A model generated the notes under the pieces. That model searched no databases and had not been told where the DNA came from. It saw nothing but the letters and a program-made list of their open reading frames with translations. From Marinicella algicola (GTDB taxonomy: Bacteria; Pseudomonadota; Gammaproteobacteria; Xanthomonadales; Marinicellaceae), in NCBI RefSeq assembly GCF_028401385.1, contig NZ_JAQOMR010000002.1, positions 124,001 to 188,000 on the forward strand: 64,000 nt of DNA. The letters are read 5' to 3'. Within the stretch, counting starts at the first letter, position 1; every line of letters begins with the position of its first letter. This document shows positions 4,434 through 64,000 of this stretch, in pieces. The position numbers were made by a program, and so were the translations under genes.

Positions 4434-4507
4434 TCCATCGCACTCGTTTGCATTTGCATTTCGAGCGCCATGGAAACTGAAAACAATGCGCTACAGGGAG
4501 TGAGACA

Positions 4508-5659: not shown

Positions 5660-6421
5660 ATGATCACCGATGATTTTCACCTTTCCGGAAAAACGGCAAT
5701 TGTAACCGGCTGCGATACCGGTCTCGGTCAGGGCATGGCCGTTGCGCTAGCCGAGGCCGGCGCGGACATTGTCGGCGTCAATATTGTCGAGCCGGCGGAT
5801 ACGATCGCCAAGGTCGAGGCGCTCGGACGCCGTTTCGTGTCGATCGAAGCCAATCTGATGAAGCAGGACGACATTCCGCGGATCGTGGAAAGGGCCGTCA
5901 GTGAATTCGGCAAGATCGACATTCTGGTCAACAATGCCGGCATCATTCGCCGCGAAGACGCCACCTCCTTCTCCGAGAAGGACTGGGATGACGTGATGAA
6001 CATCAACATCAAAAGCGTCTTCTTCCTATCTCAAGCCGTCGCCCGCCAGTTCATCGCGCAGGGCCATGGCGGCAAGATCGTCAATATCGCCTCGATGTTG
6101 TCGTTTCAGGGTGGAATCCGGGTGCCTTCCTATACAGCCTCGAAAAGCGGCGTCATGGGCATCACCAAACTGTTGGCGAATGAATGGGCGCACCATGGCA
6201 TCAACGTCAACGCCATCGCGCCCGGCTACATGGCGACCAACAATACCGCCGCGCTGAGAGCCGACGAGGAGCGCAGCAGCGAAATCCTCGGCAGGATTCC
6301 GGCCGCGCGCTGGGGCCTTCCGCGCGATCTCGCCGGACCTGTCGTCTTCCTCGCCAGCGAAGCCTCCTCTTATGTCAACGGCTATACCATCGCCGTCGAT
6401 GGCGGCTGGCTCGCCCGCTGA
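5660..6421 (+). CDS. kduD: 2-dehydro-3-deoxy-D-gluconate 5-dehydrogenase (KduD), SDR family
   Basis: A 253-residue short-chain dehydrogenase very close to E. coli KduD as I recall it: VTGCDTGLGQGM (cofactor loop), VNNAGIIRREDA, WDDVMNINIKSVFF, INIASMLSFQGGIRVPSYTA, SKSGVMG (catalytic Tyr-x3-Lys as YTASK), NVNAIAPGYMATNNT and YVNGYTIAVDGGWLAR. It interconverts 2,5-diketo-3-deoxygluconate and 2-keto-3-deoxygluconate with NAD(H), the step after KduI in breakdown of unsaturated uronates. I chose the ATG at 5660 (GGAAGA upstream) over a 26-residue longer reading. It lies 175 bp after dctP, with a terminator between them. Confidence 0.93.
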   Translation: MITDDFHLSGKTAIVTGCDTGLGQGMAVALAEAGADIVGVNIVEPADTIAKVEALGRRFVSIEANLMKQDDIPRIVERAVSEFGKIDILVNNAGIIRREDATSFSEKDWDDVMNINIKSVFFLSQAVARQFIAQGHGGKIVNIASMLSFQGGIRVPSYTASKSGVMGITKLLANEWAHHGINVNAIAPGYMATNNTAALRADEERSSEILGRIPAARWGLPRDLAGPVVFLASEASSYVNGYTIAVDGGWLAR

Positions 6422-6561
6422 GGCCATGCCTGCTTGCGGATCGCCGGTCAGGCGGTCCGCTGTAAACCCTATCATCCAGGAAAATTCGGCGGTGCGCGTC
6501 TGCGCAGCGGCTTCTGCGCGTTGCCGAACGCGACAGGGCATTGCCGCCACCACATCCTGAG

Positions 6562-6610
6562 ATGAAATAATATTTCATATTTCGCAATTAGTTTTCATGA
6601 TGCATCATAT
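6562..6610. promoter_or_regulatory. Operator copy 2 (LacI-type), upstream of the GH105-kduI operon
   Basis: The palindrome ATGAAATAATATTTCAT (6562-6578) is followed by TTCGCAATTAG and a second element TTTTCATGATGCATCATAT (6592-6610). The two TTTCAT half-sites are 20 bp apart, about two helical turns. It matches the sites at 4384 and 12181 and lies 33-81 bp before the GTG start at 6643. Confidence 0.8.
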
Positions 6611-6642
6611 TGCCATCATGATCCTGCATCGGAGGAAAACCC

Positions 6643-7734
6643 GTGCTTTCCAGAAATCAACTGAAACACAAGATCGAGCTGCTGGTTGATGGCCTGAAGT
6701 CATTGCGCGACGAAGGCAAGTTCAACGAACCAAATCTCGACGGTACGGCCGGCGACTATGTCAGCTTCAACGCCTGGGAATGGCCTCAGGGTGTCGGGCT
6801 TTACGGACTGGCACAGATGTGGCTGAAGACGGGCGATGCGGCGGTGAAGACCCTGCTCGAGGACTGGTATTCCGCGCATATCGAGAAGGGGTTGCCGCCG
6901 CAGAACGTCAACACCACCGCGCCGATGCTGGCGCTCTCCCTTCTGTGGCGCGAAACCCGCGATCCCCGCTTCGAAGCGCCGATGAAGGACTGGGCCAACA
7001 GGATATTGACCGAGATGCCGCGCACGCGCTGCGGCGGTTTTCAGCACAATGTGTCCGACAAGATCAACGATGATGAATTGTGGGACGACACACTGTTCAT
7101 GGTGGCGCTGTTTCTGGCGAGCTATGGGCAGGGCGCCGGCCGGCGCGATCTGGTGAGCGAAGCCGCCTTCCAGTTCCTGGTGCACACGCATTATCTGTCG
7201 GAGCCGGAAACCGGGCTCTGGTTCCATGGCTGGACCTTTGACGGCAACCACAACTTTGCCCGGGCCCGCTGGGCGCGCGGCAATTCCTGGATTTCCGCCG
7301 GCGTTCTCGACCTGCTCGAACTGGCCGAACTCGATGACGCCGCGACGCGCTATCTGACGGAAGTCGTCAAGGCGCAGCTTGAAACGCTGATCGGCTATCA
7401 GGCGGAAAGCGGCGCATGGCACACGCTGGTCGACGATTTGACGTCGTATGAGGAAATCTCTGCAACCGCCGCCATCGGCTACGCTCTGTTGAAGGGCGCG
7501 CGGCTTGGCATCGGCCCGGAAAGCTGGCGCGAAGCGGGCCTGAAAGCGCTTGCCGTCACGCTCGACAATATCGGCGAAGACGGCATCGTCGACAATGTCT
7601 CCTACGGCACCCGCATGGGTCACGATCTTCAGTTCTACAAGGACATTCCGATCCAGCCGACCGGCTACGGCCAGTCCATGGCCCTGCTGCTGCTGGTCGA
7701 AGCCCTTAATATTGCCAAAGCGGAGGAAGAATGA
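6643..7734 (+). CDS. Glycoside hydrolase family 88/105, unsaturated rhamnogalacturonyl hydrolase-like
   Basis: A 363-residue cytoplasmic (alpha/alpha)6-barrel enzyme of the GH88/GH105 group. Recognisable parts are WEWPQGVGLYGLAQMW, GLPPQNVNTTAPMLALSLLW, the ELWDDTLFMVALFLASYG block with the likely catalytic Asp (about residue 148-149), GLWFHGWTFDGNHNFA and RWARGNSWISAGVLDLLELA. No signal peptide, as usual for this family. These enzymes hydrate the 4,5-double bond of unsaturated uronyl oligosaccharides, releasing 5-keto-4-deoxyuronate, the KduI substrate. GTG start with GGAGGAAAAC upstream. Its TGA overlaps the ATG of kduI, so translation is coupled. Confidence 0.88.
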   Translation: MLSRNQLKHKIELLVDGLKSLRDEGKFNEPNLDGTAGDYVSFNAWEWPQGVGLYGLAQMWLKTGDAAVKTLLEDWYSAHIEKGLPPQNVNTTAPMLALSLLWRETRDPRFEAPMKDWANRILTEMPRTRCGGFQHNVSDKINDDELWDDTLFMVALFLASYGQGAGRRDLVSEAAFQFLVHTHYLSEPETGLWFHGWTFDGNHNFARARWARGNSWISAGVLDLLELAELDDAATRYLTEVVKAQLETLIGYQAESGAWHTLVDDLTSYEEISATAAIGYALLKGARLGIGPESWREAGLKALAVTLDNIGEDGIVDNVSYGTRMGHDLQFYKDIPIQPTGYGQSMALLLLVEALNIAKAEEE

Positions 7735-8670: not shown

Positions 8671-11064
8671 GTGTCCGACACCACCATGTCGGGGAAAATG
8701 GATGCCCAATTCTTTCTCACCAAGGAGAAGAACTTCATCCCGCACGAATATCCCTGCCGCACGCAATTCGTCAGCGAGCGGCGCGGCAAACGCCCTGTGA
8801 TCGTCGAAAAACAGGGACCCGGGCGCATCTGGACGCCCTTCGGCTCGCCGCGAGTCGACCTTTCCGGTTTCTGGTTCCGCGCCACCGCGGTTTCCGCATG
8901 GGCGGAAACCCGTATTGAAGCTGAAACCTCCGGAACGGCAAAGTTGAAGCTCAGTTGCTGCGGAGGTGCAGTCCTGTTCGTCAACGGCGCGGAAGTGGGC
9001 TCCATGAGCGTCTATCAGCGTAATTTCGAGACCGATCAGGAATTCGAAGTCCAACTAAAGGCAGGCCTGAACGATATCGCAGTATTCTTCGACGATCTTG
9101 CTGAGCGCGATGCCCGCTACTTCTTCGAACTCGATTATTGCGAGGGCCCAGCGGCTTCCGTTTCTCTCAACGTTCCCTGCGAAAGCGGGCTTGCCGACGA
9201 AATCGAGAACATGCTCGAAACCATGCATTTCGAGCGCCCGGCCTACTCGTCGGGTGAGGTTGCCTTTCATTGCCCCGAAACCGTCAGTCAGGACCTTGAT
9301 GTCGAAATCATCGTCGCGGGCGATTTTCTGGCCGAAGAGCACGACACGTTTAACGCAAGCCTGCCCGCGGGTTCCTCGCGGCTTGTCGTCGGTGACGTAT
9401 CCGCATTCCACAGCGACTTTCGCCATTTCGACGTGCGCCTCGCCGCCTGTGGCCTGACCCTGTCGCGGCCATTCACGGTTGAAATCGCGCGCTGCGAGGA
9501 ACAGGGCGAACCGCCGGAGAGCTTTGACGACCGAATTGAGGAGGCGCTCCGGCATGTCGCCGACAATGGCTATGCCGATGCGATTTCTGCGCTGGCACGG
9601 CTCGGGCTCGGTCTTGGCGACGCTGAGACCGAGGCGATGATCGAGGTCTCGCTGCCGAAAATCGAAAACTGCCACGACTGCGCCGATTTTCATCTCGTTC
9701 CACTGCTGTTCGGCCGGATCCGCTATGGAGATCTTCTTTCGGAGGACATCCGCAAGCGGATCGATGCGGCAACACTCAACTTCCGTTACTGGATGGACGA
9801 GCCTGGCAATGACGTGCAGTGGTATTATTCGGAAAACCACGCGCTGTTGTTTCACACAGCCGCCTATCTGGCGGGGCATTTTCATGCCGACAAGCGTTTT
9901 GTCCGCGCCAATGTGACCGGCGATGAGCAGTCAAAACGCGGTGCAGCGCGGCTCATGGACTGGTTCGATCACTTCGAAAAATGGGAAATGGCCGAGTTCA
10001 ACTCGGTGCCCTATTTCCCGATCGACCTGAAGGGCCTGGCGACGCTCTATGCACTGGCACATGACGAGGATATCCGCGAGCGCGCCCGCAAGGCGATCCT
10101 GCGGCTGATTGCGGTCGTCGCCGCCTCGGCGCATCACGGCACGCTGACAGCCGCACAGGGGCGCTCCTACGAGCACACACTGATGGCAGCACGCACGAGC
10201 GAGCTTTCAGCAATTTCGCGTGTCCTCTGGTCGCGCGGATATTACGGACGCACCTTCCAGACGCTACCGCAATTCCTGCTATGCCTGCGAGATTTCGGCC
10301 TCGTGATCCCCGCGAGCGATCGCGACACCGCCCGCCTTACCGGTGCAAAGCGGCAGGAATGGACGTTCTCGCAAGGCGAGAACCGGTTCGCCCATCTCTA
10401 CCACTACAAGACTGCGGAAACGGCAATGGGATCGCTGGCCCGTTATCGCTGGGGCGAATGGGGCTATCAGGAAACCGTGCTGCAACTGAGGGTCGGGCGC
10501 AATCCCGATGCCCAGATCTGGGTGAACCATCCAGGCGAGGTCATTCATTGCGGTTTCGGCAGGCCATCCTACTGGGGTGGTTGCGGCGCACTGCCGCGTG
10601 TGCATCAGTATCGCAACCTAGCCGTGGTTCTCTTCGAAACCCACGAAGGGCAGCCGGATTTCAGCCATATCTGGTTCCCTGCCCAGGTTTTTGACAAAAC
10701 CATCGCCGGTACGCACTTTGCCTGCGCAAGCTCGGGGAACGGTTTCGTCATGGTGACCGGAACGACGCCTCTCGAACAGGTGACAACCGGACCGACGGCC
10801 GGCATGGAAATCCGCCAGAACGGCCGCAAGACTGCCTGGATGTTCCGGCTGGCCGACGGCGGGGAGGTTGACGGTGGACTTGCCGGTTTCCAGAAACGTT
10901 TCGAGGCCTGCGCCTTCACGCTTGCCGAAGACGGAACCGTCGCAGTCGTCGACCCGGATTATGGCCATGTCTCATTCGGTCCGGACGGCGCGATCGTGGC
11001 GGAGGGACGGAACCTGAACCCCGCCGACTGGACAATCGAGGGCACGATCCATCAGTTCGACTGA
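8671..11064 (+). CDS. Large uncharacterised protein of the uronate regulon (possible polysaccharide-active enzyme)
   Basis: About 797 residues from the GTG at 8671, which has AAGAGGA upstream; the frame also opens at 8569, overlapping the kduI stop, so a longer form is possible. I do not recognise the family. The first 300 residues look beta-rich (RIWTPFGSPRVDLSGFWF, AKLKLSCCGGAVLFVNGAEV), like a jelly-roll. The middle looks helical with toroid-like segments (NDVQWYYSENHALLFHTAAY, MAEFNSVPYFPIDLKGLATL). The C-terminal third is again beta-rich with QIWVNHPGEVIHCGFGRPSY. That beta/helical-toroid/beta layout resembles some lyases and hydrolases acting on uronic polysaccharides. No signal peptide is evident, so a cytoplasmic role on imported oligosaccharides fits. 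The function is an inference from context only. Confidence 0.7.
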   Translation: MSDTTMSGKMDAQFFLTKEKNFIPHEYPCRTQFVSERRGKRPVIVEKQGPGRIWTPFGSPRVDLSGFWFRATAVSAWAETRIEAETSGTAKLKLSCCGGAVLFVNGAEVGSMSVYQRNFETDQEFEVQLKAGLNDIAVFFDDLAERDARYFFELDYCEGPAASVSLNVPCESGLADEIENMLETMHFERPAYSSGEVAFHCPETVSQDLDVEIIVAGDFLAEEHDTFNASLPAGSSRLVVGDVSAFHSDFRHFDVRLAACGLTLSRPFTVEIARCEEQGEPPESFDDRIEEALRHVADNGYADAISALARLGLGLGDAETEAMIEVSLPKIENCHDCADFHLVPLLFGRIRYGDLLSEDIRKRIDAATLNFRYWMDEPGNDVQWYYSENHALLFHTAAYLAGHFHADKRFVRANVTGDEQSKRGAARLMDWFDHFEKWEMAEFNSVPYFPIDLKGLATLYALAHDEDIRERARKAILRLIAVVAASAHHGTLTAAQGRSYEHTLMAARTSELSAISRVLWSRGYYGRTFQTLPQFLLCLRDFGLVIPASDRDTARLTGAKRQEWTFSQGENRFAHLYHYKTAETAMGSLARYRWGEWGYQETVLQLRVGRNPDAQIWVNHPGEVIHCGFGRPSYWGGCGALPRVHQYRNLAVVLFETHEGQPDFSHIWFPAQVFDKTIAGTHFACASSGNGFVMVTGTTPLEQVTTGPTAGMEIRQNGRKTAWMFRLADGGEVDGGLAGFQKRFEACAFTLAEDGTVAVVDPDYGHVSFGPDGAIVAEGRNLNPADWTIEGTIHQFD

Positions 11065-54413: not shown

Positions 54414-54960
54414 TGAACTACAATCCGGTGACTATTCCGTGCCTGTCGCCTACGGTCATCAGGACGTTTGGGTTCGAGGCTATGTCGACAAGGTGGTGAT
54501 TGGTTGCCGCGGCGAGATCATCGCCCGCCATCCCAGGAGCTGGGATCGGGAAGATGTCATCTTCGACCCTGTTCATTACCTGCCGCTGATCGAACAGAAG
54601 ATCAATGCGCTGGATCAGGCGGCCCCTCTGCAGGGCTGGGCTCTGCCGGAGGAGTTTGCGACACTGTGCCGGCTGATGGAAGGCCGCATGGCAAAGCATG
54701 GCCGGCGAGAATACGTGCAGGTTCTTCGACTGCTGGAAAGCTTCGATATGGCTGACCTGCATGCGGCGATCAAGCAAGCCCTGCAACTCGGCGCGATTGG
54801 CTTCGACGCCGTCAAACATCTGATTCTTTGCCGGGTGGAGCGCCGGCCGCCGCGACTGGATCTGTCGATCTATCCCTACCTGCCGAGAGCAACCGTCGAG
54901 ACGACATCGGCGAAGGCGTACATGGGCCTCTTGTCATCGGGGAAGGGAGAAGCGGCATGA
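54414..54960 (+). pseudogene. istA: IS21-family IstA, C-terminal part
   Basis: About 180 residues: DYSVPVAYGHQDVWVRGYVD, KVVIGCRGEIIARHPRSWDR, FDPVHYLPLIEQKINALDQA, then AKHGRREYVQVLRLLESFDM and FDAVKHLILCRVERRPPRLD. This is the C-terminal beta-barrel and tail of an IS21 transposase; the helix-turn-helix and DDE domain (about 300 residues) are missing. The 3' end overlaps istB by ATGA, as in intact IS21 elements. Confidence 0.8.
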
Positions 54961-55715
54961 GCACCGAAGCACCCGAGATTCTGCTTGCCCACGACCTCAA
55001 GACCCTGAAGCTGCCGACCTTCCAGCGGGAGTATCAGAAACTGGCCCGGCTTTGCGCCACCGAGGGCGTCGACCACATCGGGTACCTCAGCCGGCTTGCC
55101 GAGCGGGAAATGGTCGAACGGGATCGTCGTAAGGTCGAGCGGCGTATCAAGGCAGCCAAATTCCCGGTCGTCAAAAGCCTCGACAGTTTCGACTTTGCCG
55201 CCATCCCGAAGCTCAACAAGATGCAGGTGCTGGAGCTGGCCCGCTGCGAATGGATCGAGCGTCGCGAGAACGTCATCGCTCTCGGCCCCAGCGGAACCGG
55301 GAAGACGCACATAGCGCTCGCCCTCGGCCTTTCAGCCTGCCAGAAGGGCCTGTCTGTTGGCTTCACCACAGCCGCAGCCATGGTCAGTGAGATGATGGAA
55401 GCCCGTGACGAGCGGCGTCTCTTGCGTTTCCAAAAGCAGATGGCAGGGTACAAGCTGCTGATCATCGACGAACTCGGCTTCGTGCCGCTCTCCAAGACTG
55501 GCGCGGAACTGCCGTTCGAGTTGATCTCGCAACGTTATGAGCGGGGCGCCACCCTGATCACCAGCAATTTGCCCTTTGACGAATGGACGGAAACTCTGGG
55601 TTCGGAGCGACTGACCGGCGCTCTGCTCGACCGCGTCACGCACCATGTCAACATTCTCGAAATGAATGGCGACAGCTATCGTCTCGCCCAAAGCCGTGCC
55701 CGAAAGGCCAGCTGA
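54957..55715 (+). CDS. istB: IS21-family IstB helper ATPase
   Basis: A 252-residue AAA+ protein: EILLAHDLKTLKLPTFQREY, NVIALGPSGTGKTHIALALG (Walker A), YKLLIIDELGFVPLSKTGAE (Walker B), TLITSNLPFDEWTETLGSER (sensor) and NILEMNGDSYRLAQSRARKA. It appears intact and starts in an ATGA overlap with istA. Without an intact IstA it cannot direct transposition of this copy. Confidence 0.9.
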   Translation: MSTEAPEILLAHDLKTLKLPTFQREYQKLARLCATEGVDHIGYLSRLAEREMVERDRRKVERRIKAAKFPVVKSLDSFDFAAIPKLNKMQVLELARCEWIERRENVIALGPSGTGKTHIALALGLSACQKGLSVGFTTAAAMVSEMMEARDERRLLRFQKQMAGYKLLIIDELGFVPLSKTGAELPFELISQRYERGATLITSNLPFDEWTETLGSERLTGALLDRVTHHVNILEMNGDSYRLAQSRARKAS

Positions 55716-55952: not shown

Positions 55953-57057
55953 CTATGCGGCGGCTTGTGCAAGAAGCTTCGGCAGTCTGACAAGGTTATA
56001 GGCCGCGATGGCGAATCCGAAGACGGCGGCGACTTTCGGCCTTCCCCGGACCTTTACTTTGGCGAAACCGGCCTGCGCCTTGACCCAGCCGAACACCTCT
56101 TCGATGCGCTTGCGGCAGCGCAGGCTTATGCCGTAGCCGGGATGGTGCGTCGTGCGCTTGTCGATGGCGGTTTTACGGAGCTTGCCGGTCCTGGAAATAC
56201 TGCCGTTGATGGCGATATGCGGTGTGACCTTGCGGGCGCGCAAGCTCCCGACAAAGGCTTCGACATCATAAGCCTTGTCGGCGGCAAGCGTGATGCGTCG
56301 GCTTTTGTGCTTCGCCGGTCGAGCATGGCAAGGGTTGCCTCGCGCTCGGCCAGCCCGGTCGCCAGCGTCAGTTCGGCATCGACGACAAGCCCGTTGCGGT
56401 TTTCCATCAGCGCGTGGCCCATGTAGCACAGCCGACTTTCCCGCCCATTGGCCTTGCGATAGAGCTGCGCATCGGGATCGGTTGTCGAGGCATGCGTCTC
56501 GTTTGAGCGTTTCTCGCCATGAAAGTCACGCTCGCCATTGCGTCCCGGTTGAGGCGGATCGCCCGAGCCATCCTTGGGACGAAAGCTCTTCATGCTCGCC
56601 CAGGCGTCAATCAGCGTGCCGTCCACCGAAAAATGTTCGCTCGACATCAACCGCTTGACCTTGGGCAGGGTCATCAGCGCGGACAGGAAATCCCGCGCCA
56701 CATCGGCTTCCAGAAGACGGTCACGATTGTGCGTGAAGCCGGTTGGATGCCAGACATCGGCATCCATCGACAGGCCGACGAACCAGCGAAACAAGAGATT
56801 GTAGTTGATCTGCTCCATCAGCATCCGCTCGGAGCGGATCGAGAAGAAAGCCTGCAAAAGCGTGGCCCGAAGCAGCATCTCGGGCGGGATCGAAGGTCGG
56901 CCGACGCGCGCATAAAGCACCTCAAGCCGACCGCTGAGCGACGCCAGAACCTCATCCGTCAGCGTCCGGATCGCCCGCAACGGATGATCCGCCGGAACGC
57001 GTTCCTCCAGCCGTACGAAACTAAAAGCTCATCCCCGTGATCCGATCGACCGCGCAT
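55953..57057 (-). pseudogene. IS5/IS1182-type transposase, frameshifted
   Basis: ATG 57057 gives RGRSDHGDELL, then after a shift FVRLEERVPADHPLRAIRTL, LRATLLQAFFSIRSERMLME, QINYNLLFRWFVGLSMDADV, EHFSVDGTLIDAWASMKSFR (first catalytic Asp) and ESRLCYMGHALMENRNGLVV. Another shift near 56300 leads to ITLAADKAYDVEAFVGSLRA (second Asp), HHPGYGISLRCRKRIEEVFG (Glu) and VRLPKLLAQAAA. At least two frameshifts, both of one base. Its 5' end lies against the NADAR-type gene; 55845-55952 is its 3' flank, cut by the IS21 end. Confidence 0.75.
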
Positions 57058-57133
57058 AAATCAACCCCCGCAAATCAATGCCGAAAGTGAATCACAAACT
57101 CTGCCCGCTGACGAGCAGTTTTGCAGCAGCCTG

Positions 57134-57806
57134 TTAGAACAGGCTGCCCTGCGCACTATCGTCTTGCCGTGCATTCGAGATCAAGACCTGATCAAGAGCA
57201 GCAAGGAACGCCTTTCTGTCTGTCGCCGCCCGCCGAAGCAATCCGCGAAGCGAAAGCGATACATAAAGTGCCGCCGAATAGGCTTGGCAGTTAATCGATT
57301 TTTCGGGGTTAAACTCGATATCCGTGAAGGCTGAATAGTCCAACAAACGTTCAGCCAATTGAGGCTGGCGAACAAGAGCACTGATGTAAAGCCAATCGTA
57401 AAAGCCAGTCTGTGGCTCGAGTGGCCAGTCTTCACCACCGAACCGAAAAGCCACCAATCGACCAGAGGACTTCAAGCGCGGGTCCCGCTTGGCTTCGCGC
57501 GGCGACACATTGAACAGATCCGTATAGGGGCCGCCCTCCTCAAAAACCTTGCTGCCCTGAAAAGCGCATTCGAGAGGCAGTGGGTTCCCAGTTTGCGGGT
57601 AATTTAGCTTCAAATTGAATGCGCTGAGTGCGATGCCGAGACTCTCTTCGGATTTACTCGATATTTCCAACACCGAATTGACCCCAACCGATTGCAGGCT
57701 GGCTTCGTGCAGTGAAGCGACTGACTTTTTTCTGAGCTGCGGACATCCCCGCAAACCATTTGAAGGTGACGAACTGGGTTTTTACATAGACTTTGCCGTC
57801 AGTCAC
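57134..57806 (-). CDS. NADAR-type antitoxin of a DarT1-like system, frameshifted
   Basis: About 223 residues. The start is probably GTG 57806, overlapping the darT-like stop (GGTGACTGA): TDGKVYVKTQFVTFKWFAGM. An extra A in the AAAAAA run near 57732 shifts the frame; with five A residues it reads AAQKKSVASLHEASLQSVGV. The body has LPLECAFQGSKVFEEGGPYT, DLFNVSPREAKRDPRLKSSG, FRFGGEDWPLEPQTGFYDWL-YISAL and LLDYSAFTDIEFNPEKSINC. I recognise this as the family found next to DarT1 toxins and described as DarT1-associated NADAR antitoxins, which remove ADP-ribose from guanosine in DNA. That name comes from memory and needs a profile search. Confidence 0.72.
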
Positions 57807-59076
57807 CGGAATAAAAATTGGTCGTGCGGCCATTGTTATTTTCCGTATTTTCGAGCGAACCTGCGTGATTCAAACAGGTTATCACCTTTGACAGAGAAGA
57901 AGGACTGGCGTCTAGAAACGATCCGCTCCTTTTGCCGACAGCCTGACTGTGGCGCTGCGCAGCTTCATCGCTTTCGAACACCACTCCGGTTATCTCTTCC
58001 GGCGGTATCGCACCGAAGACAAGCACTTCGGCCTGTGGGTCCGTCGGATCATAGCGCTCAAGGCGTTCAACCGAGCGGGCCGAGAGCGTATCGTCCTCAT
58101 TGAACATCGCCCTGAATGTGGCAGCACTCTTGAGATCGCCAATATCTGAATTGCGAATACGGCGATCAGCGGCATTATGTCGGCAGAATGCACAGCCCAG
58201 CTGCCACAAAATTCTGGGTTTCAGCAACAAGATGGCCCAATCGATATCCGGGTTAAGCTGGCGATATTTATAGAACATCTGGTAGTTGGGAAAACCAATC
58301 GAAAGGGACGTTGCATTGCGGTGCCTGTCCCAGCGGTTATGGTCATTCACCTCTTGGCGTATCCCCGATTGGCGGCCAGTCGACACCGGGATTAATCCGT
58401 ATTTCATGATAGAGGACAAATTCGAGCACCGCGTGAAATGCACGAGAAACGGGATGTCCAGCTCCAGAGCGGTTTCCTCAATATCCTCTCGTTCACGTCC
58501 GATCCAGGAATCGGCAAGATTGTGTGCACGATCGTCACTCTCGAAAAAGATGTCGAAGGGAGAACGCTGATCATGCGAAAAGGACTCTTCGATGAAAGCG
58601 GGACCTTCTTCTCGCATTCCCGGCGGCGGTGGTCCGGGGCTATCAGTGATAGCCCCCTTATCTTCAGCTCCATTCGGAGCCGCATTAACGTCTTCCAGAA
58701 TTGCTCTAAGAAAAGTATCACTTAGCGTTTCATTTTGAGCGGCTATGATGTCCGATTCTAGAACCTTAGAGTTCTCAATACTGGCCACGACGGCAAGAAA
58801 CAGCTCGGAACCACCCTTTGTGGAGGCCATCAAGTCAACAAATCGGGACAAGAGATCCTGATCGGCCTCTAGCCTACTCGCCATTTCCCTGAAACTTTTG
58901 GCTTGGTTTTCGACTTCGGCATAGAATGCGTCTGTGAGTGCCTGCTTCGTCTCCGCGTCATACGTATCAACCTGGGAGAGCGCTTCGCGGCGGTCGCGGT
59001 TGATTTTGAGCAAACTACCGGTAGATTTGTCGTCCTCAGGATTCTCATTGCGTTCCGCCTCAGCTTGACGCTCCAT
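57799..59076 (-). CDS. DarT-like ssDNA ADP-ribosyltransferase toxin with a long N-terminal extension
   Basis: A 425-residue protein. Residues about 207-375 are a DarT (DUF4433) domain: IPFLVHFTRCSNLSSIMKYG (NAD-site His 213), NDHNRWDRHRNATSLSIGFP, NYQMFYKYRQLNPDIDWAIL, LWQLGCAFCRHNAADRRIRN and DPQAEVLVFGAIPPEEITGV, where E350 matches the catalytic Glu of the QAEVLV motif. SFPNYKMFYKYR-type wording and the CAFC pair point to the DarT1 branch. DarT enzymes normally consist of about 200-230 residues; here residues 1-206 are an added, mostly helical acidic region (QALTDAFYAEVENQAKSFRE) with a proline linker (DSPGPPPPGMREEGP). ATG 59076 has TTAGGG upstream. It should be lethal without the antitoxin downstream. 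Confidence 0.83.
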   Translation of the reverse strand: MERQAEAERNENPEDDKSTGSLLKINRDRREALSQVDTYDAETKQALTDAFYAEVENQAKSFREMASRLEADQDLLSRFVDLMASTKGGSELFLAVVASIENSKVLESDIIAAQNETLSDTFLRAILEDVNAAPNGAEDKGAITDSPGPPPPGMREEGPAFIEESFSHDQRSPFDIFFESDDRAHNLADSWIGREREDIEETALELDIPFLVHFTRCSNLSSIMKYGLIPVSTGRQSGIRQEVNDHNRWDRHRNATSLSIGFPNYQMFYKYRQLNPDIDWAILLLKPRILWQLGCAFCRHNAADRRIRNSDIGDLKSAATFRAMFNEDDTLSARSVERLERYDPTDPQAEVLVFGAIPPEEITGVVFESDEAAQRHSQAVGKRSGSFLDASPSSLSKVITCLNHAGSLENTENNNGRTTNFYSGD

Positions 59077-59121
59077 TCGCGCCCTAAGTTCCTCGAGTGT
59101 GTCCGGAGACAGCGCGCGTTT

Positions 59122-59601
59122 TTAGCCTTCGAGATCTGTAGGAAAGTCCGCAAGTTTAAACTTTGTTTCGATTACCCTCGTCTGCACTTTGATCGGAGAA
59201 CAGATATTTAGCTTCCGGTTTGAGAGTCTGGTTGCCTCAAGAATATTTTCAAGTTCGCGATTAAATGAATTGAGGCTTCCGACGAACCCCTCATCCGCGC
59301 GCGCCTCCTCTTCCAAATCCTGTTTGCCCGCTTGCAACTTCGCGCGCGGGGTGTCTGACACAAGCTCTGGCGGTTGGCTGGGCCCGAGCAATGAGGGCGA
59401 GGTAAATTGATGTCTGGGCCTCAGTAGGAAATACGTTCCCCAAACGACGGCCAACTGCAGGAACAACAATGGTGGATAGAAAAGATTGATGACAGAAAAA
59501 GCCGTCCAACCCCAGGCGGCGGCCAAAAATAATTTTGAACGAAGTAGACGAACTCCAGTCAGCGTGAACACGATAACAAGCTGATATGCAATGACAGTCA
59601 T
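59122..59601 (-). CDS. Small membrane protein upstream of the DarT-like gene
   Basis: A 159-residue protein of unknown family. Three hydrophobic segments come first (YQLVIVFTLTGVRLL, LFLAAAWGWTAFSVINLF, PPLLFLQLAVVWGTYFLL), then a soluble tail with a likely coiled coil (KLQAGKQDLEEEARADEGFV, FNRELENILEATRLSNRKLN). Its TAA (59122-59124) is in the same frame as the DarT-like gene, and the 15 codons between the TAA and ATG 59076 are open. The two may be coupled or once fused. It may tether the toxin or sense phage at the membrane; that is speculation. Confidence 0.65.
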   Translation of the reverse strand: MTVIAYQLVIVFTLTGVRLLRSKLFLAAAWGWTAFSVINLFYPPLLFLQLAVVWGTYFLLRPRHQFTSPSLLGPSQPPELVSDTPRAKLQAGKQDLEEEARADEGFVGSLNSFNRELENILEATRLSNRKLNICSPIKVQTRVIETKFKLADFPTDLEG

Positions 59602-59734
59602 GACGCCCCCGAGAAGCCAATAGCATATTGGCTACAATCCAAGGGTTAACTGAAGGTTAGTAACAACTGAAATAGACTAGAAATTAGCTGCTTCCAAAGG
59701 AGGTCAGGAGTTTTGCCTGCTTCGGGTTGGAATG

Positions 59735-59821
59735 TCATTGTCGATGACACTTACGCAGTTTCAACCCACGACGGCGCACCTGTGCCTGCCAGCGCCCTCT
59801 GAGCTTGCGTATTGTCGCCAT
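59735..59821 (-). pseudogene. Tyrosine integrase N-terminal stub
   Basis: ATG 59821 gives MATIRKLRGRWQAQVRRRGL, then KLRKCHRQ and a stop. MATIRK..RWQAQVRR.G is the arm-binding start of phage-type site-specific integrases. Only 28 residues remain. It suggests that the defence genes came in on an integrative element. The other bases in 59602-59986 hold no supported gene. Confidence 0.55.
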
Positions 59822-59986
59822 CGTGATCTCCGAGTTAACTACTGTGATCACGCGTAGGATGCCGGTGATGAGGAGCCAAGGATTATCCCGGCGAACCTTG
59901 CGACATCCGCAACGGGCAGAAACAATTAAAGGCATTGGCTCCGGCGTGTCGGCCCTAGTTGGCCGAGGACGAGCAGCGTTCACGGT

Positions 59987-60605
59987 TCATGCTTCTTCAG
60001 CACTGTATCCACGAGATCTAACAAGCTGCAGCAAATCTTCGGCCAGAACATCTTCCAGAAGTCGCCCTTCCACCAGAGCACCACCTTTCATATATGCCAA
60101 CCCGGCCGGTGTCTTCAGATCGCCTACATCAACAAACCTCGAAAAAACGGCCACCAAGGCCGCGATTCTTCACGATTGCGAAGCAAATTTAGTTCTTCGA
60201 CGTTAACGTGCTTGAGCATGCCCCATAAAGTCGAGTCGATAGGCTTACGCAGCTCTTCCGGTCCACAATAGGCACGAATTCCAGCCGCCACGCCATAGTA
60301 GTTCGGATCGTCGAACTCAATTCTGACCGAGAGCTCAGATGGCCAGCCTTGACGCCGCCAGGAAATTCCAGCCCAACGCACCGCTTTTCTTGCAGCGTCG
60401 TTAGAAACCACAATTCCGTCCTCCATTGCGGCAATGCGCTGATCTAACCGATGGAGAAATTCCTTGATCTGAAGGTCGAGGATTTCAATCCATGTCTCGG
60501 AAACGGCAGCCGCCAGCTCTAGCTCTGACAAACTCCTTTCTGGGCGCTCGCAAGCAACCGCGCGCTGACAGCAGACTTCACCGCTTCAAACTCAGACCTA
60601 TTCAT
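59987..60605 (-). CDS. Unrecognised partner of the PD-(D/E)XK nuclease, two frameshifts
   Basis: ATG 60605 overlaps the nuclease stop (ATGAATAG). Pieces in order: NRSEFEAVKSAVSARLLASA, then ERSLSELELAAAVSETWIEI, LDLQIKEFLHRLDQRIAAME, KAVRWAGISWRRQGWPSELS, VRIEFDDPNYYGVAAGIRAY, LWGMLKHVNVEELNLLRNRE-ESRPWWPFF, then SRFVDVGDLKTPAGLAYMKG and LLQLVRSRGYSAEEA. A base is missing near 60553 and a T in the T run near 60151. About 205 residues. I do not recognise the family. The coupling says it works with the nuclease. Confidence 0.6.
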
Positions 60606-61296
60606 TCGATACCTCCTCCGATAAATCAGTGAAATTCTGCTCAACCCAGTCAGCGAAGTCAGACAGATAGACACGCACTTTCGGCGCTTTTGCTCGCGCT
60701 TCGCACGAGCGAAGCCAGGATGAAAGGCTCGGTCGGTCGCCTTGGCTCGTGTAGCAGATTGTTACATATCGCCCGCCAAATTCCTCAATTGTAGAGACAT
60801 TCATGGTCTGCGATTCGGTCCCACGACCAGAAAGATAGACCAGATGCCCACCCTCGCGCACATGAGCGCGCTTAATATAAGAGGCGTAACGTTCCATCTG
60901 ATCGGGTTGCTCGGAAGCATAGGGTTTGTTTTCGATAATCAGAAAATCCACCATCCGCAACTGAAGAACGATATCAATCTGTCCTTCCGATACCCGTTTT
61001 TCCCGCAGGACTCGTATATTCGTTATGTCGTCAGTCACCACGGCGGCGGTGAAATCACATAGCTTCAGAAACAGCTCCAAAAACACATCGCCTTGCCCAT
61101 GAACTCCATTGGGATCAAGGAGATCGGCAATCATGCGGGAGAGACCCAACTCGTCCGTGCGCATATAATCGAGTAGATTCAGGTCCGATCCTAGTTCATA
61201 GGCAAGCCTGCGCCCCAAAGTCGTCGCCGCCGACGCAACAGTTTCCATCGTTGTGAAAAAGTGGTCGACCCGCCTGTCAATTTCCATTTTCTCCAT
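60598..61296 (-). CDS. PD-(D/E)XK nuclease-superfamily protein (PDDEXK_4-like)
   Basis: A 232-residue protein. Helical start, then TDELGLSRMIADLLDPNGVH (with the first acidic residue), EKRVSEGQIDIVLQLR (Asp 108), DFLIIENKPYASEQPDQMER (Glu 122-x-Lys 124) and LVYLSGRGTESQ. The spacing Asp, then Glu-x-Lys, is that of PD-(D/E)XK nucleases. Proteins of this type with the ENKPYAxEQ motif are common in defence islands but poorly characterised. RBS GGAG before ATG 61296. It overlaps the next gene by 8 bp. Confidence 0.8.
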   Translation of the reverse strand: MEKMEIDRRVDHFFTTMETVASAATTLGRRLAYELGSDLNLLDYMRTDELGLSRMIADLLDPNGVHGQGDVFLELFLKLCDFTAAVVTDDITNIRVLREKRVSEGQIDIVLQLRMVDFLIIENKPYASEQPDQMERYASYIKRAHVREGGHLVYLSGRGTESQTMNVSTIEEFGGRYVTICYTSQGDRPSLSSWLRSCEARAKAPKVRVYLSDFADWVEQNFTDLSEEVSNE

Positions 61297-61305
61297 CCCC
61301 GCTCC

Positions 61306-61512
61306 TTATTGCGATTCAAAAACCGCAACGCGATTCCTCAATCGCTGTTCGATCTCGGGTATAGTTCGATCATGAAGTGAATAGCCCCGAGTTTTGTAGA
61401 CGCCAACCATAAGCGAAAAGGACGCATTTGCGACCGCATCGATCGTGTGACCTTGTATCGCCTGCGCCCCGGTCGTGGCGCTCGCGAGGAACGGCGCAAA
61501 TAAACACGCCAC
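61306..61512 (-). CDS. Small open reading frame before the nuclease gene
   Basis: A 68-residue frame from GTG 61512: VACLFAPFLASATTGAQAIQ, GHTIDAVANASFSLMVGVYK, TRGYSLHDRTIPEIEQRLRN-RVAVFESQ. It ends 9 bp before the nuclease start. It may be the 3' part of a truncated gene, since no ribosome site is seen. No family recognised. Confidence 0.35.
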   Translation of the reverse strand: MACLFAPFLASATTGAQAIQGHTIDAVANASFSLMVGVYKTRGYSLHDRTIPEIEQRLRNRVAVFESQ

Positions 61513-61738
61513 ATCCAGATCGAGACATGGACCAAGTTAAAAATAAAGAATTGATTTTCCGAAAAATCTGGCGGGCCGAAGACGGCGAAACCGAGAACTA
61601 CACCTACGCCATAGCCCTACAAATTGACTCGCCATGACATCCTTTCGCGTTTCACCAGCAAGTCAAATGCCGCACTGACGCGAGAGAGCCGCGAGCCATC
61701 CGTCGTCGCGAAACACGGGCATCATTCTTGAAATTCGG

Positions 61739-61764
61739 CCTTGACATTGACACTAATGTCAAGG
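61739..61764. promoter_or_regulatory. MerR-type operator/promoter
   Basis: Perfect inverted repeat CCTTGACATT-GACACT-AATGTCAAGG that includes a -35-like TTGACA at 61741. MerR regulators bind such a palindrome in the spacer of their target promoter. It lies 29 bp before the merR-type start, so it should control the regulator and the MFS gene behind it. Confidence 0.75.
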
Positions 61765-61792
61765 TGCTAGGGCAGCGTGGAAAGGGACCGAA

Positions 61793-62263
61793 ATGCAGAT
61801 CAAGGAAGCTGCCGAAAGGCTCGGGATCACGGAGCGCATGTTGCGCCATTATGAGAAGGCGGGCCTCATGGATGCCCAGCGCTCGAAGAATGGCTATCGC
61901 AGCTACAGCGAAACCGACCTGCGCCGGGCGGGACGCATCCGCGATCTCATTGCGACAGGCTTTTCTACACGCGAGGTCCGCGCCATGGCGGCCTGCCTCT
62001 CCGACGAGGGTGCAGGACCGTGTGAGGGCGGTATTCCGCAATTGCTGGAAAAACTGGAGCATATCGACCGGCTCAGAGCCGATCTTGATGCAAAGCGGGA
62101 AGCGGTACTCGACCGCCTCGCCATGTTTCGGGAGTCCCTTTCGACCCATCACGAAAGGAACGACCTACACCATGCTGCGCCTGATACTTCTCTTCTTGAT
62201 CGCCTTCCTCGTGGGGGCCGACGAATTCCTGTTGGGGCCGATCCTCACGCCGATAGGAACTGA
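61793..62263 (+). CDS. MerR-family transcriptional regulator
   Basis: Up to 156 residues. Winged helix: MQIKEAAERLGITERMLRHY, EKAGLMDAQRSKNGYRSYSE, TDLRRAGRIRDLIATGFSTR. A dimerisation helix follows (LLEKLEHIDRLRADLDAKRE). The last 30 residues overlap the MFS start by 92 bp and look unlike the family, so a frameshift near 62150 may have lengthened it. RBS AAAGGGA. It probably activates the MFS gene in response to a drug or toxic compound. Confidence 0.85.
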   Translation: MQIKEAAERLGITERMLRHYEKAGLMDAQRSKNGYRSYSETDLRRAGRIRDLIATGFSTREVRAMAACLSDEGAGPCEGGIPQLLEKLEHIDRLRADLDAKREAVLDRLAMFRESLSTHHERNDLHHAAPDTSLLDRLPRGGRRIPVGADPHADRN

Positions 62264-63334
62264 CCTTTCGGTTCCGGCCGAGCGCATCGCGCTATTCATC
62301 ACGGCCTACAGTCTGCCACTGGCGATCATGGCCCCTATCCTTGGCGGCGTTTCCGACCGATACGGGCGGCTCGCCGTCCTTGTCCCCTCAACGCTCGTGT
62401 TCGGCCTCGCGTCGATTGCCACGTCCTTCGTCCCTACATTCGAGACGGGCATTGCCACCCGCATCCTGACTGGGGCGGCGAGCGGCGGAATGCTCGGCAT
62501 CGCCATGGCGATGGCAGGCGACCTTGGCGAGAAGGCCGCGCCCAAGGCCATCGCCTTCGTCACTTCCGGCCTCACGCTCGGCATCATTCTCAGCCCCGGC
62601 ATCGGCGCGCTGTCGGCGGAGTTTTGGTCATGGCGGTTCGCCTTTGCGGCGCTCGGTGGAATGGCTCTAATCGTGGTTTTGATCGGCCTGCCGTCGTTGC
62701 GCACGACACCGGCACCAAATCATCGACCGAACGCCGATGCTGACAATGTGGTGGGGCCGCTTTCGTGCCGGGCGCATGGGGAAGCCTGATCGCCATGGCC
62801 TCTGGCCTCGGCGGCGCGGTCGGTTGCTTCGCGCTGGTGGGCGAGCGACTGCGTTCCCTTTACGAATGGGACACGGCAACAGTGGGCATGGTCTATGCCG
62901 GCTTTGGCATCCTCACGCTGGTCGGCAATTTCACCATGCCGATGGCGCTGGCCCGCATCGGCAGCGGTCGCGCGTTGATGCGGATCGCGCTGATCTTCGT
63001 GCTGGCAGCGATTGCCGTCACCTATGTCTTTGACAGCCTTGCTCCGGCTTTGGTTCTGCTTGCACTGGCGATGTGGGCGGTGCTTGGCGGCATCGGCGCT
63101 CCGGGCCTGCAAACCCATATCGCGCAACTCTCACCCACCCGCAGAGGCACGCTGATGGCATTGGCGGGAAGCAGTATGAACCTAGGTGTCGCAGGAGCGA
63201 CCGCGCTGGCGTCCAGCGTCTACCCGGCTGGCGCAGCATGGGTTGCCGTTGTAGCGCTGATTCTTATTGTCATCGCGATATTGGCTTTGCGCCCGGTTGA
63301 CGCAGGCGCTGCTGAAAGGGTCTCAAAAAGATAA
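62172..63334 (+). CDS. MFS transporter (DHA1-type drug efflux), frameshifted
   Basis: About 387 residues with 12 hydrophobic helices. Start ATG 62172: LRLILLFLIAFLVGADEFLL, GPILTPIGTDLSVPAERIAL, LAIMAPILGGVSDRYGRLAV (motif A), ATRILTGAASGGMLGIAMAM, GIILSPGIGALSAEFWSWRF (motif C-like). A one-base error in the GGGG run near 62753 shifts the frame; the second half has WGSLIAMASGLGGAVGCFAL and PGLQTHIAQLSPTRRGTLMA. It is controlled by the MerR gene and probably exports a small toxic compound. Confidence 0.85.
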
Positions 63335-63856
63335 CCCGCCATGTGCCGTTGACCCTTCCAATCGCGCCATATGGCGTGCGGTGATCGGCGGCACATAGGC
63401 TATTTTCGGCGTCAATCGGCGGTGTTTGGCGGACCGGGCCGGATCTCGAACTTATACGCTGAAGTGATCGCCTAGAACTCGGTTACGCCATATGCATTGT
63501 CTGCTTTCGGGCGATCGCAAGAGACAGTTGAACGGCCGGAATTGGGGCGCATTTTCGCCTGGCCGCTTTCCACCTTATTCTTGAACGTTCGCGGGTGAAT
63601 CCTGAGATCACGAAAGCCGTCAATGGAAGTGCTACTGAGTGACGACGTATCCGACAGAGTCTTCATCTTCCAGGCCGACCAGCAGCACCATAATCCGCTA
63701 GCCCCACACCTGGGCGGTCTCGGCTTGGTAGAATGCGACCTCCAGCGGCCACTTGTTGTGTCGAAGGCTCGCCAGCCATTTGGAACGGTAATCCCCCGAA
63801 AAATAATGGGCTTCAAAAGTAGAATTTTCTCGGGTTTTATGACTGAGGAGATTTTG
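63335..63856. other. Intergenic stretch without a supported gene
   Basis: Between the MFS gene and the IS3 element. Frames on the minus strand (63472-63897) have no recognisable domain and run into the IS3 start. The left end of the IS3 element probably lies near 63810 (GCTTCAAAAGTAGAATTTTC). Confidence 0.45.
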
Positions 63857-64000
63857 ATGAAAAAGACGAGATTTAGCGAAGCACAGATTATTGGCATTCT
63901 GCGTCAGGCAGAAGGTGGCGTTCCTGTGCCTGAACTTTGCCGGGAGCACGGGATGAGTTCAGCGAGTTTTTATAAATGGCGGGCCAAATATGGCGGCATG
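63857..64000 (+). CDS. IS3-family transposase OrfA (3' end outside window)
   Basis: The 48 visible residues read MKKTRFSEAQIIGILRQAEG, GVPVPELCREHGMSSASFYK, WRAKYGGM. This is the helix-turn-helix OrfA of an IS3-family (IS407-like) element. ATG 63857 has TGAGGAG upstream. OrfB, with the DDE domain, should follow beyond the window. Confidence 0.88.
   Translation, partial: MKKTRFSEAQIIGILRQAEGGVPVPELCREHGMSSASFYKWRAKYGGM

What the first reader, a model, noticed from the sequence alone, without database searches (positions are those of the whole stretch)
57134..59601. DarT1-like toxin with a ~200-residue N-terminal extension, a NADAR-type antitoxin and a membrane protein in one operon
Seen: three minus-strand genes in tight order (membrane protein, DarT-domain protein, NADAR-like protein). 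The DarT domain (residues ~207-375) keeps the NAD-site His 213 and the catalytic Glu 350. Known: DarT enzymes ADP-ribosylate bases in single-stranded DNA, and DarTG systems block phage. Inferred: the extra helical region and the three-helix membrane protein could place the toxin at the membrane or tie its activation to a membrane event. That arrangement is not one I know.
Basis: partly seen in the sequence, partly recalled or inferred. Interest (0 to 1): 0.85.

Follow-up and report, generated by a model that had tools for sequence, protein, structure and literature searches.

The report
Broken membrane-anchored DNA-ADP-ribosylating toxin with antitoxin
The window holds a damaged copy of a toxin-antitoxin pair whose toxin, in intact relatives, is one protein tying a DNA-modifying enzyme to the cell membrane through a small module that is also found on other DNA-attacking enzymes, which suggests bacteria may use it to attack DNA at the membrane.

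Summary
The DarT1-type toxin and NADAR antitoxin are real (PF14487 E 8.7e-19; PF22397 E 3.4e-79); this pair (DarTG1) is known. What changes is the membrane "gene". In Martelella radicis (L002, 86% identical) the membrane part, helical region and DarT1 domain are one 588-residue protein followed by an intact NADAR. In the window an in-frame TAA (59122-59124) splits that frame, the toxin's C-terminus and the antitoxin each change frame, and the upstream gene is broken too, so this copy is probably dead. A Rhizobium leguminosarum plasmid encodes a second intact fusion. The membrane part is a ~65-residue, probably three-helix module without a family in the libraries scanned. It also precedes a restriction-type, a PLD and an exonuclease VII-like nuclease domain in other alphaproteobacteria. 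Held-out profile tests and profile-profile comparison support common descent, and it has the lowest dN/dS of the pieces compared (0.05). Best reading: an exchangeable inner-membrane anchor or sensor that places DNA-attacking enzymes where foreign DNA enters, like SNIPE in logic but not in domains. Anatomy is shown; mechanism is inferred. Structure prediction never ran.

The parts
59407..59601 (-). Membrane module, probably three helices (first 65 residues of the 159-aa ORF 59122-59601)
   Evidence: Hydropathy peaks and charge pattern; 64 of 65 residues identical to M. radicis, dN/dS 0.05; profile hits fused to DarT1, restriction-type, PLD and exonuclease VII-like domains
59125..59406 (-). Post-membrane linker
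   Evidence: 83 of 94 residues identical to M. radicis, dN/dS 0.41
59122..59124 (-). In-frame TAA that splits the toxin reading frame; both sides are in the same frame
   Evidence: no stop at this place in M. radicis
58492..59121 (-). Helical extension between membrane part and DarT domain; the window ORF restarts at the ATG at 59076
   Evidence: 155 of 195 residues after the ATG identical to M. radicis, dN/dS 0.60; fastest-evolving of the long pieces
57940..58491 (-). DarT1 ADP-ribosyltransferase domain
   Evidence: PF14487 E 8.7e-19; PDB 8BAQ (E. coli C7 DarT1) E 2.8e-29; dN/dS 0.16
57799..57939 (-). C-terminal tail of the window DarT ORF, out of frame relative to M. radicis
   Evidence: frame change near 57933
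57725..57833 (-). First ~37 codons of the NADAR antitoxin, in a different frame from the rest
   Evidence: PF22397 positions 1-37, E 8.8e-08
57134..57724 (-). Rest of the NADAR antitoxin, including the conserved catalytic motifs
   Evidence: PF22397 positions 33-210, E 3.4e-79; 186 of 196 residues identical to M. radicis, dN/dS 0.17; the intact M. radicis copy matches PDB 8BAT at E 1.9e-83
60598..61296 (-). PD-(D/E)XK nuclease gene (PDDEXK_4; PADLOC candidate family PDC-S26), first gene of a pair upstream of the toxin in both genomes
59987..60600 (-). Second gene of that pair, changing frame near 60535 and near 60147
   Evidence: one open frame in M. radicis, pieces in the window
59760..59894 (-). 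Copy of the start region of a tyrosine integrase gene, a repeat that bounds the DarT1-NADAR cassette in M. radicis
   Evidence: integrase PF00589
55953..56980 (-). IS5-type transposase in two frames directly downstream of the antitoxin
   Evidence: ORFs; DUF772 transposase domain in the first frame, second frame judged by eye; matches to IS5-family transposases

Best explanation
The locus is a decayed copy of a two-gene DarTG1-type toxin-antitoxin pair with a new toxin architecture: an inner-membrane module of probably three helices, a fast-evolving helical linker and a DarT1 guanine-type DNA ADP-ribosyltransferase domain in one polypeptide, followed by a NADAR antitoxin. In the intact form the enzyme sits on the cytoplasmic face of the inner membrane. 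DNA that enters or replicates there (phage DNA or other incoming DNA) is ADP-ribosylated while the chromosome is largely spared, and NADAR removes stray marks from host DNA. The membrane module is an exchangeable anchor or sensor, because the same module precedes other DNA-attacking domains. SHOWN here: the parts, the single reading frame in M. radicis and R. leguminosarum, the breaks in the window, the shared module, its constraint, and a charge pattern that predicts the enzyme on the cytoplasmic side. INFERRED: membrane location, action on entering DNA, defence role, and that the window copy is inactive.
For: Families. One ORF in M. radicis and in R. leguminosarum OyaliB plasmid p2, where the record calls it a DarT family protein; the next gene is NADAR-DarT1, E 5.9e-83. 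Novosphingobium MBES04 has the module in frame with the linker, a frame change inside DarT, and a NADAR next, E 3e-87. Catalytic residues: those essential in PMC11543638 (R52, D54, M71, N104, E152) correspond to R248, D250, M267, N301 and E350 in the window, and the guanine-reading K74/Y75 to K270/Y271 (alignment, positions, passages of the paper; I set the paper's numbers one below the PDB chain's, which fits its H17, F18, N48 and D49). Module family: held-out scores 23.6-73.6 bits against at most 15.8 for the best of 2000 shuffles each and at most 8.6 for 911 other ORF N-termini; hhalign probability 96%, E 4.3e-9, between DarT1/REase-type and PLD-type modules. Charges: loop 1 has 2-4 K/R, loop 2 none, the stretch after segment 3 has 1-5, in 9 of 9 sequences. 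Constraint: module dN/dS 0.05, DarT 0.16, NADAR 0.17, linker 0.41, extension 0.60. Context: a candidate-defence nuclease gene and, about 8-13 kb on, type I restriction-modification genes accompany the M. radicis copy; the PLD and restriction-type partners match PADLOC models (MkoB/MkoC, DrmC, PDC-S37, Hhe). Precedent: SNIPE, a membrane-bound nuclease that cuts phage DNA during injection (PMC13190303: abstract, passages and Discussion section seen).
Against: No experiment, no structure and no membrane predictor was available; helices rest on hydropathy and conservation, and only two peaks pass the threshold in the two sequences of the PLD genus tested, while the exonuclease VII-like carrier has a fourth. 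The loops were fixed residue ranges, off register in Salipiger; net charge after segment 3 is zero in 2 of 9. Only two intact fusions to DarT1 were found. DarT1 without the module is more common (12 of the 21 other NADAR loci examined), so anchoring is not needed for DarTG1 function. Six of seven PLD fusions come from one genus, and the restriction-type and exonuclease VII-like partners rest on one sequence each (the latter just over its cut-off, 37.3 against 35.9 bits; it has no PADLOC match). The R. leguminosarum module was weak in the first search (E 0.5, no better than two hits that I set aside at E 0.4). DarT1 acts on single-stranded DNA, whereas tailed phages inject double-stranded DNA (recalled). 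In three of the six carrier genomes of the PLD genus the gene lies beside a SRAP-type gene, not an evident defence island (by eye).
Confidence: 0.55

Rival explanations
1. Two separate proteins: the membrane protein and the DarT1 toxin are distinct genes in the window lineage (translation restarting at the ATG at 59076), and the M. radicis fusion is a secondary read-through.
For: The window as read has a stop and a downstream ATG.
Against: The module is N-terminally fused in R. leguminosarum, and in frame with the linker in Novosphingobium, at 30-32% identity to M. radicis; the 15 codons between stop and ATG still match the fused protein in the same frame at 13 of 15; the neighbouring genes are broken too; in the nine carriers with other partners the module is fused to its partner.
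Confidence: 0.07
2. Assembly or read errors: the window copy is intact in the real organism and the apparent breaks are indel errors, so it encodes a working membrane-anchored DarT1-NADAR pair.
For: Two of the frame changes lie in or beside runs of A (sequence); the frame changes are one- or two-base events. Five of 150 ABC-transporter domains in the genome are also cut short, so breaks elsewhere are not absent.
Against: At least five breaks in about 4.2 kb, one of them an in-frame stop among several base differences, against 5 of 150 domains (about 64 kb; 150 of 340 candidates were scored) covering 105 or fewer of 137 positions, one of these with a stop inside.
Confidence: 0.2
3. The module serves against incoming single-stranded DNA (conjugation or natural transformation) rather than phage: DarT1, exonuclease VII and NucT-like PLD nucleases are all known for single-strand DNA.
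For: DarT1 acts on ssDNA (PMC11543638, passages); exonuclease VII-like and NucT/DrmC-type matches; three carriers lie on plasmids. That exonuclease VII and NucT act on ssDNA is recalled.
Against: The restriction-type partner is expected to act on duplex DNA (recalled); the DarTG1 precedent is phage defence (PMC11543638, passages); no direct evidence.
Confidence: 0.2
4. The module is only a generic anchor that keeps a dangerous enzyme away from the nucleoid, with no sensing and no entry-site role.
For: SNIPE without its membrane segment is highly toxic (PMC13190303, passages).
Against: A plain anchor need not keep sequence: Q7, W32 and Q49 (M. radicis numbering) are invariant in 8 aligned sequences and the module has the lowest dN/dS of the pieces compared.
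Confidence: 0.25

Closest known systems
DarTG1 (DarT1-NADAR) toxin-antitoxin system, E. coli C7 / Geobacter lovleyi (PMC11543638)
   Same: Same toxin domain with the five essential residues and the guanine-reading K/Y, same NADAR family with its conserved motifs, same gene order
   Different: The E. coli C7 toxin chain in the PDB is 208 residues and lacks the membrane module and helical extension; 'transmembrane' does not occur in that paper's text and its two uses of 'membrane' are unrelated
SNIPE (PMC13190303)
   Same: N-terminal membrane segment, middle region and C-terminal DNA-attacking domain in one protein; variable N-terminal regions (passages)
   Different: SNIPE has a single-pass segment, DUF4041 and GIY-YIG; here a probable three-helix module and DarT1, no DUF4041 or GIY-YIG match, and a NADAR antitoxin
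PLD nucleases of the PADLOC models MkoB/MkoC (Mokosh, name recalled) and DrmC (DISARM)
   Same: The PLD domain of two of the module's PLD carriers (G617, G667) matches these models
   Different: The proteins here are short (243-255 residues from the start codon) with only the membrane module and the PLD domain

Membership tests
DarT1 (guanine-type DarT) | DarT fold by profile | tested here: met
   PF14487 68.5 bits, cut-off 22.5; PDB 8BAQ E 2.8e-29. The NCBIfam equivalog for DarT is not met (17.2 of 150 bits); I take that model to describe DarT2-type toxins (recalled)
DarT1 (guanine-type DarT) | R52, D54, M71, N104, E152 and K74/Y75 of E. coli C7 DarT1 | tested here: met
   Alignment (E152 is A in the solved mutant chain), positions, residues named
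DarT1 (guanine-type DarT) | ADP-ribosylates guanine in single-stranded DNA | not testable with these tools
   Needs biochemistry
DarTG1 toxin-antitoxin system | NADAR-DarT1 antitoxin directly downstream | tested here: met
   PF22397 in the window, there changing frame; intact in M. radicis, R. leguminosarum and Novosphingobium
DarTG1 toxin-antitoxin system | NADAR residues E88, K95, K115, D171 | tested here: met
   LECAFQGSKVF, SPREAKRDP and FTDIEF motifs are in the window ORF 57134-57754; assignment to the residue numbers of PMC11543638 section 12 is mine, by motif and spacing
DarTG1 toxin-antitoxin system | Toxicity relieved by the antitoxin | not testable with these tools
   Needs an expression test
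DarTG2 | Macrodomain DarG antitoxin | tested here: not met
   The downstream gene is NADAR; no macrodomain match
[quoted passage not shown]
   Pfam scan of the 588-residue M. radicis protein gives only DarT above cut-off
Kiwa, Zorya | Their membrane and partner proteins | tested here: inconclusive
   No PADLOC match other than DarT for the full M. radicis and R. leguminosarum toxins; that PADLOC holds these models is recalled, and neighbours were scanned only in part
Unnamed membrane-module family (defined here) | Held-out profile score above shuffles and above other ORF N-termini | tested here: met

The most novel reading that the evidence does not exclude
An unrecognised plug-in membrane module of alphaproteobacteria converts unrelated DNA-attacking enzymes (DNA ADP-ribosyltransferase, restriction-type nuclease, PLD nuclease, exonuclease VII-like nuclease) into guards at the inner membrane that mark or cut DNA as it enters the cell, telling self from non-self by place rather than by sequence; the DarT1 form would be a location-based immune system that chemically marks entering DNA instead of cutting it.
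Probability: 0.4. Interest if true: 0.88.

Novelty: new variant of a known kind. Interest (0 to 1): 0.7.

Why it matters
How DarTG1 toxins are triggered during infection is, as far as I know, open. A covalently membrane-anchored DarT1 suggests a location-based trigger, and a module shared by four kinds of DNA-attacking enzymes gives a handle (profile A4) to find more such systems. It also makes testable whether acting on DNA at its point of entry, as shown for SNIPE, is a wider strategy that includes chemical marking of DNA.

Tried and rejected
Separate membrane partner for the toxin: rejected, because relatives show one protein. Prophage cargo: the M. radicis cassette is in an IMG/VR contig (L014) that also holds Mu-like phage genes (portal, terminase, MuA/MuB-type, 7 of 18 ORFs of L064 and 3 of 10 of L065 scanned), but an integrase and restriction genes lie on its other side, so I call it island-borne next to a Mu-like prophage. 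Programmed frameshift in the antitoxin: not favoured, because M. radicis, R. leguminosarum and Novosphingobium need none. Module hits set aside as chance: G427, G432 and G626 (partial coverage, short frame or stop inside; L037 read, the other two judged from the table), G791 (inside a transporter, L045 read), G775, G843, G886 and G897 (table only), G1141 (L052 read), H49 and H50 (E 0.4), although R. leguminosarum, kept, had E 0.5 there: it is kept because the hit is the start of its DarT protein and it scores E 4e-3 and 51.9 bits held out. No Rfam match in 56000-64000, no tRNA in the window. Structure prediction, and hence fold search, never ran: the queue was full at 13 attempts. Searches that gave nothing new: phages; the exonuclease VII-type module in plasmids; IMG/VR with the R. 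leguminosarum, Salipiger and G617 proteins, and with M. radicis toxin queries and A1 only the M. radicis contig itself; 398 relatives with the M. radicis N-terminus (own genome only). Void or replaced: the 'decoys' included family members, so only its shuffles count; family members were removed by motif patterns; the NADAR pieces were cut out of frame and one search replaces them. Literature: listings in the held open library (titles and abstract starts; several capped) showed no membrane-anchored DarT; subscription papers are mostly not held, and the original DarTG phage paper is not held. PMC11543638: passages and section 12; PMC11125620: passages only.
Full report
WHAT IS IN THE WINDOW. Three minus-strand ORFs lie at 59122-59601 (159 aa), 57799-59076 (425 aa) and 57134-57754 (206 aa). 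The 425-aa ORF matches PF14487 DarT at residues 213-383 (E 8.7e-19) and the 206-aa ORF matches PF22397, the DarT1-associated NADAR antitoxin (E 3.4e-79). The one solved chain found for the toxin is E. coli C7 DarT1 (8BAQ, E 2.8e-29). The residue names come from passages seen, the alignment, positions; the one-residue offset between paper and PDB chain is my reading.

THE MEMBRANE 'GENE' IS PART OF THE TOXIN. One pattern scan of 84,980 species genomes, which reaches close relatives only, found four relatives of the window DarT ORF. The closest, in Martelella radicis (86% identity), is a single open frame (4446-6239 of L002; 588 residues from the ATG at 4476) containing the membrane part, the helical extension and DarT1, followed at 6245-6946 by an intact NADAR. 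In the window the membrane ORF and the DarT ORF are in the same frame, parted by one TAA at 59122-59124, and the 15 codons between that stop and the next ATG still match the M. radicis protein at 13 of 15 positions. A second, diverged fusion is encoded on R. leguminosarum OyaliB plasmid p2 (387 residues), with a NADAR-DarT1 gene next (E 5.9e-83). A third, on Novosphingobium MBES04 plasmid p2, has the module and linker in one frame (no gene is annotated over the module), a frame change inside the DarT domain, and a NADAR next (E 3e-87).

THE WINDOW COPY IS BROKEN. Besides the stop, the window DarT ORF leaves the M. radicis frame near 57933, the NADAR changes frame near 57729 (its first 37 residues match PF22397 1-37 in the frame of 57654-57833), and the second gene of the upstream nuclease pair changes frame near 60535 and near 60147. 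An IS5-type transposase, itself in two frames, follows the antitoxin. As a control on assembly quality, 150 ABC-transporter domain matches in the same genome (about 64 kb; 150 of 340 candidates scored) include 5 that cover 105 or fewer of 137 positions, one of them with a stop inside, against at least five breaks in about 4.2 kb here. Local decay is therefore likelier than a poor assembly, though indel errors are not excluded. Intact copies exist in M. radicis and R. leguminosarum. From the window copy I expect no working system (inference).

A SHARED MEMBRANE MODULE. The first ~65 residues form three hydrophobic segments in 7 of 9 sequences tested; in the two from the PLD genus only two peaks pass the threshold, and the exonuclease VII-like carrier has a fourth further on. 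Loop 1 carries 2-4 Lys/Arg, loop 2 none, and the stretch after segment 3 carries 1-5, in 9 of 9 (fixed residue ranges, off register in Salipiger; net charge of the last stretch is zero in Novosphingobium and G617). By the positive-inside rule (recalled) this puts the N-terminus outside and the enzyme inside the cell. A tblastn search with the M. radicis N-terminus in 72,556 plasmid records gave 5 records at E <= 1: Salipiger CCB-MM3 (1e-4) ahead of a restriction-type domain (MTES_1575 E 3.6e-13 and DUF559), Novosphingobium (4e-3) and R. leguminosarum (0.5) ahead of DarT1, and two hits at 0.4 set aside. Searches from the Salipiger and Novosphingobium modules each returned exactly those three carriers, R. 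leguminosarum at E 0.9 and 4e-3; the G617 module returned two of them, the G451 module none. For Salipiger I used the ATG at L033:4986, upstream of the annotated start.

PROFILE SEARCHES OF GENOMES. 7 of 369 class genomes at E <= 0.01: own (in the profile), and new G617, G451 and G667, plus three set aside. 8 of 398 phylum genomes: own and G667 (in the profile), new G1093, five set aside. Three follow-up sets at E <= 0.001 (sets overlap with the earlier ones): 3 of 113 (G617 and G451, both in the profile, and one set aside), 1 of 114 (G451), 6 of 107 (G667 and G1093 in the profile, four new, all one genus; 6 of the 10 genomes of that genus listed). Partner domains: G617 PLDc_2 (E 3.7e-07), G667 PLDc_2 (2.8e-13), G451 exonuclease VII large subunit (3e-09, just over the cut-off); G1093, G1148, G1152 and G1153 PLDc_2 (E 1.1e-14 to 6.7e-13); G1147 PLD by eye. 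In all, 13 loci carry the module: DarT1 in 4 (window included), PLD in 7, restriction-type in 1, exonuclease VII-like in 1.

IS THE MODULE FAMILY REAL? Hydrophobic stretches can look alike by chance. With each of 8 sequences held out (the two same-genus PLD ones together), the profile of the rest scored it at 23.6-73.6 bits; the best of 2000 shuffles of each scored 15.8 at most; the best of 911 unrelated ORF N-termini from the loci in hand, 47 of them hydrophobic, scored 8.6 at most (family members had been removed by motif patterns). The weakest are the PLD-genus pair, 23.6 and 23.8 bits against 13.2 and 11.8 for shuffles. A profile of the DarT1 and restriction-type modules against a profile of six PLD-type modules gives probability 96%, E 4.3e-9. 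Q7, W32 and Q49 (M. radicis numbering) are invariant in the 8-sequence alignments. Between the window and M. radicis the module has the lowest dN/dS of seven pieces: 0.05 (64 of 65 residues, so one amino-acid change), DarT 0.16, NADAR 0.17, upstream nuclease 0.34, linker 0.41, helical extension 0.60, and 0.76 for the 15 codons after the stop, too few to weigh.

HOW COMMON IS IT AMONG DarT1 SYSTEMS? I examined 22 loci with a NADAR-DarT1 antitoxin, window included (L014 and L015 left out as repeats of L002): 4 have the module (window, L002, L029, L032); 12 have DarT1 without it (L003, L004, L011, L012, L016, L017, L024, L030 without long extensions; L005 and L010 with other N-terminal extensions; L018 and L023 with long C-terminal ones); 5 have a short toxin of another HFT type (L006, L019-L022; of these only L022 matched DarT, weakly, E 2.8e-05); 1 runs off the contig (L013). 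Of 27 plasmid records with a DarT-like match, 2 carry a module match next to it. NADAR-DarT1 itself is uncommon: 2 of 101 relatives and 5 of 369 class genomes, own included.

MECHANISM. DarT1 with NADAR is an established toxin-antitoxin pair that ADP-ribosylates guanine in single-stranded DNA; phage infection triggers DarT (PMC11543638, passages). Fusing DarT1 to an inner-membrane module would hold it where DNA enters. The closest demonstrated logic is SNIPE, which sits in the membrane and cuts phage DNA during injection (PMC13190303: abstract, passages, Discussion section). That four unrelated DNA-acting domains share one module argues that the module, not the enzyme, defines the system. In M. 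radicis the cassette stands beside a candidate-defence nuclease gene, with type I restriction genes about 8-13 kb on one side and Mu-like prophage genes on the other. Whether the module senses an event or only anchors is open; conservation of polar and aromatic residues argues for more than anchoring. Because DarT1, exonuclease VII and NucT-like PLD enzymes act on single strands (the last two recalled), incoming single-stranded DNA of conjugation or transformation is a serious alternative target.

WHAT IS KNOWN AND NEW. Known: the DarT1-NADAR pair. Not seen in the searches made here (open papers, listings only): a membrane-anchored DarT1, and the shared module. In the proteins scanned against Pfam, NCBIfam, PHROGs and PADLOC no listed match covers the module as a whole; some weak matches below their cut-offs overlap part of it. 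I rate it a new variant of a known kind; the wider module reading would be more.

Noticed in passing
L002:4185-4317, 6975-7110, 9281-9416; window 59760-59894: The start region of a tyrosine integrase (L002:9256-10347) is present three times in M. radicis, all here, bounding the DarT1-NADAR cassette and a GGDEF-EAL gene; it looks like a cassette array next to an integrase. The window has one copy, and three shorter matches lie on the chromosome.
   Followed up: partly
window 60598-61296 and 59987-60600: PDDEXK_4 nuclease (candidate family PDC-S26) with an overlapping second gene, kept upstream of the toxin in M. radicis; the second gene is broken in the window.
   Followed up: partly
L018:2181-3998, L023:2241-3998: DarT1 toxins with a long C-terminal extension (roughly 350 residues, leucine-rich look by eye), next to NADAR.
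   Followed up: no
L006:2123-2656(-), L019:538-1095, L020:3299-3841, L021:3456-3998, L022:3425-3997: NADAR-DarT1 antitoxins paired with a short (~180-residue) toxin of another HFT type; four of the five gave no match to the window DarT domain at E 1e-3.
   Followed up: no
L005:4434-5675, L010:283-1398: DarT1 toxins with other, apparently soluble N-terminal extensions of ~160-200 residues.
   Followed up: no
L044:1767-2492, L053, L057: In three genomes of one genus the membrane-PLD gene stands beside a gene that looks like SRAP (YedK-like; by eye), a possible link to DNA damage.
   Followed up: no
window 55953-56980 and 54828-55715: IS5-type transposase in two frames and an IstB-like ATPase gene (the latter by eye): the cassette's downstream side is rebuilt by insertion elements.
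   Followed up: no
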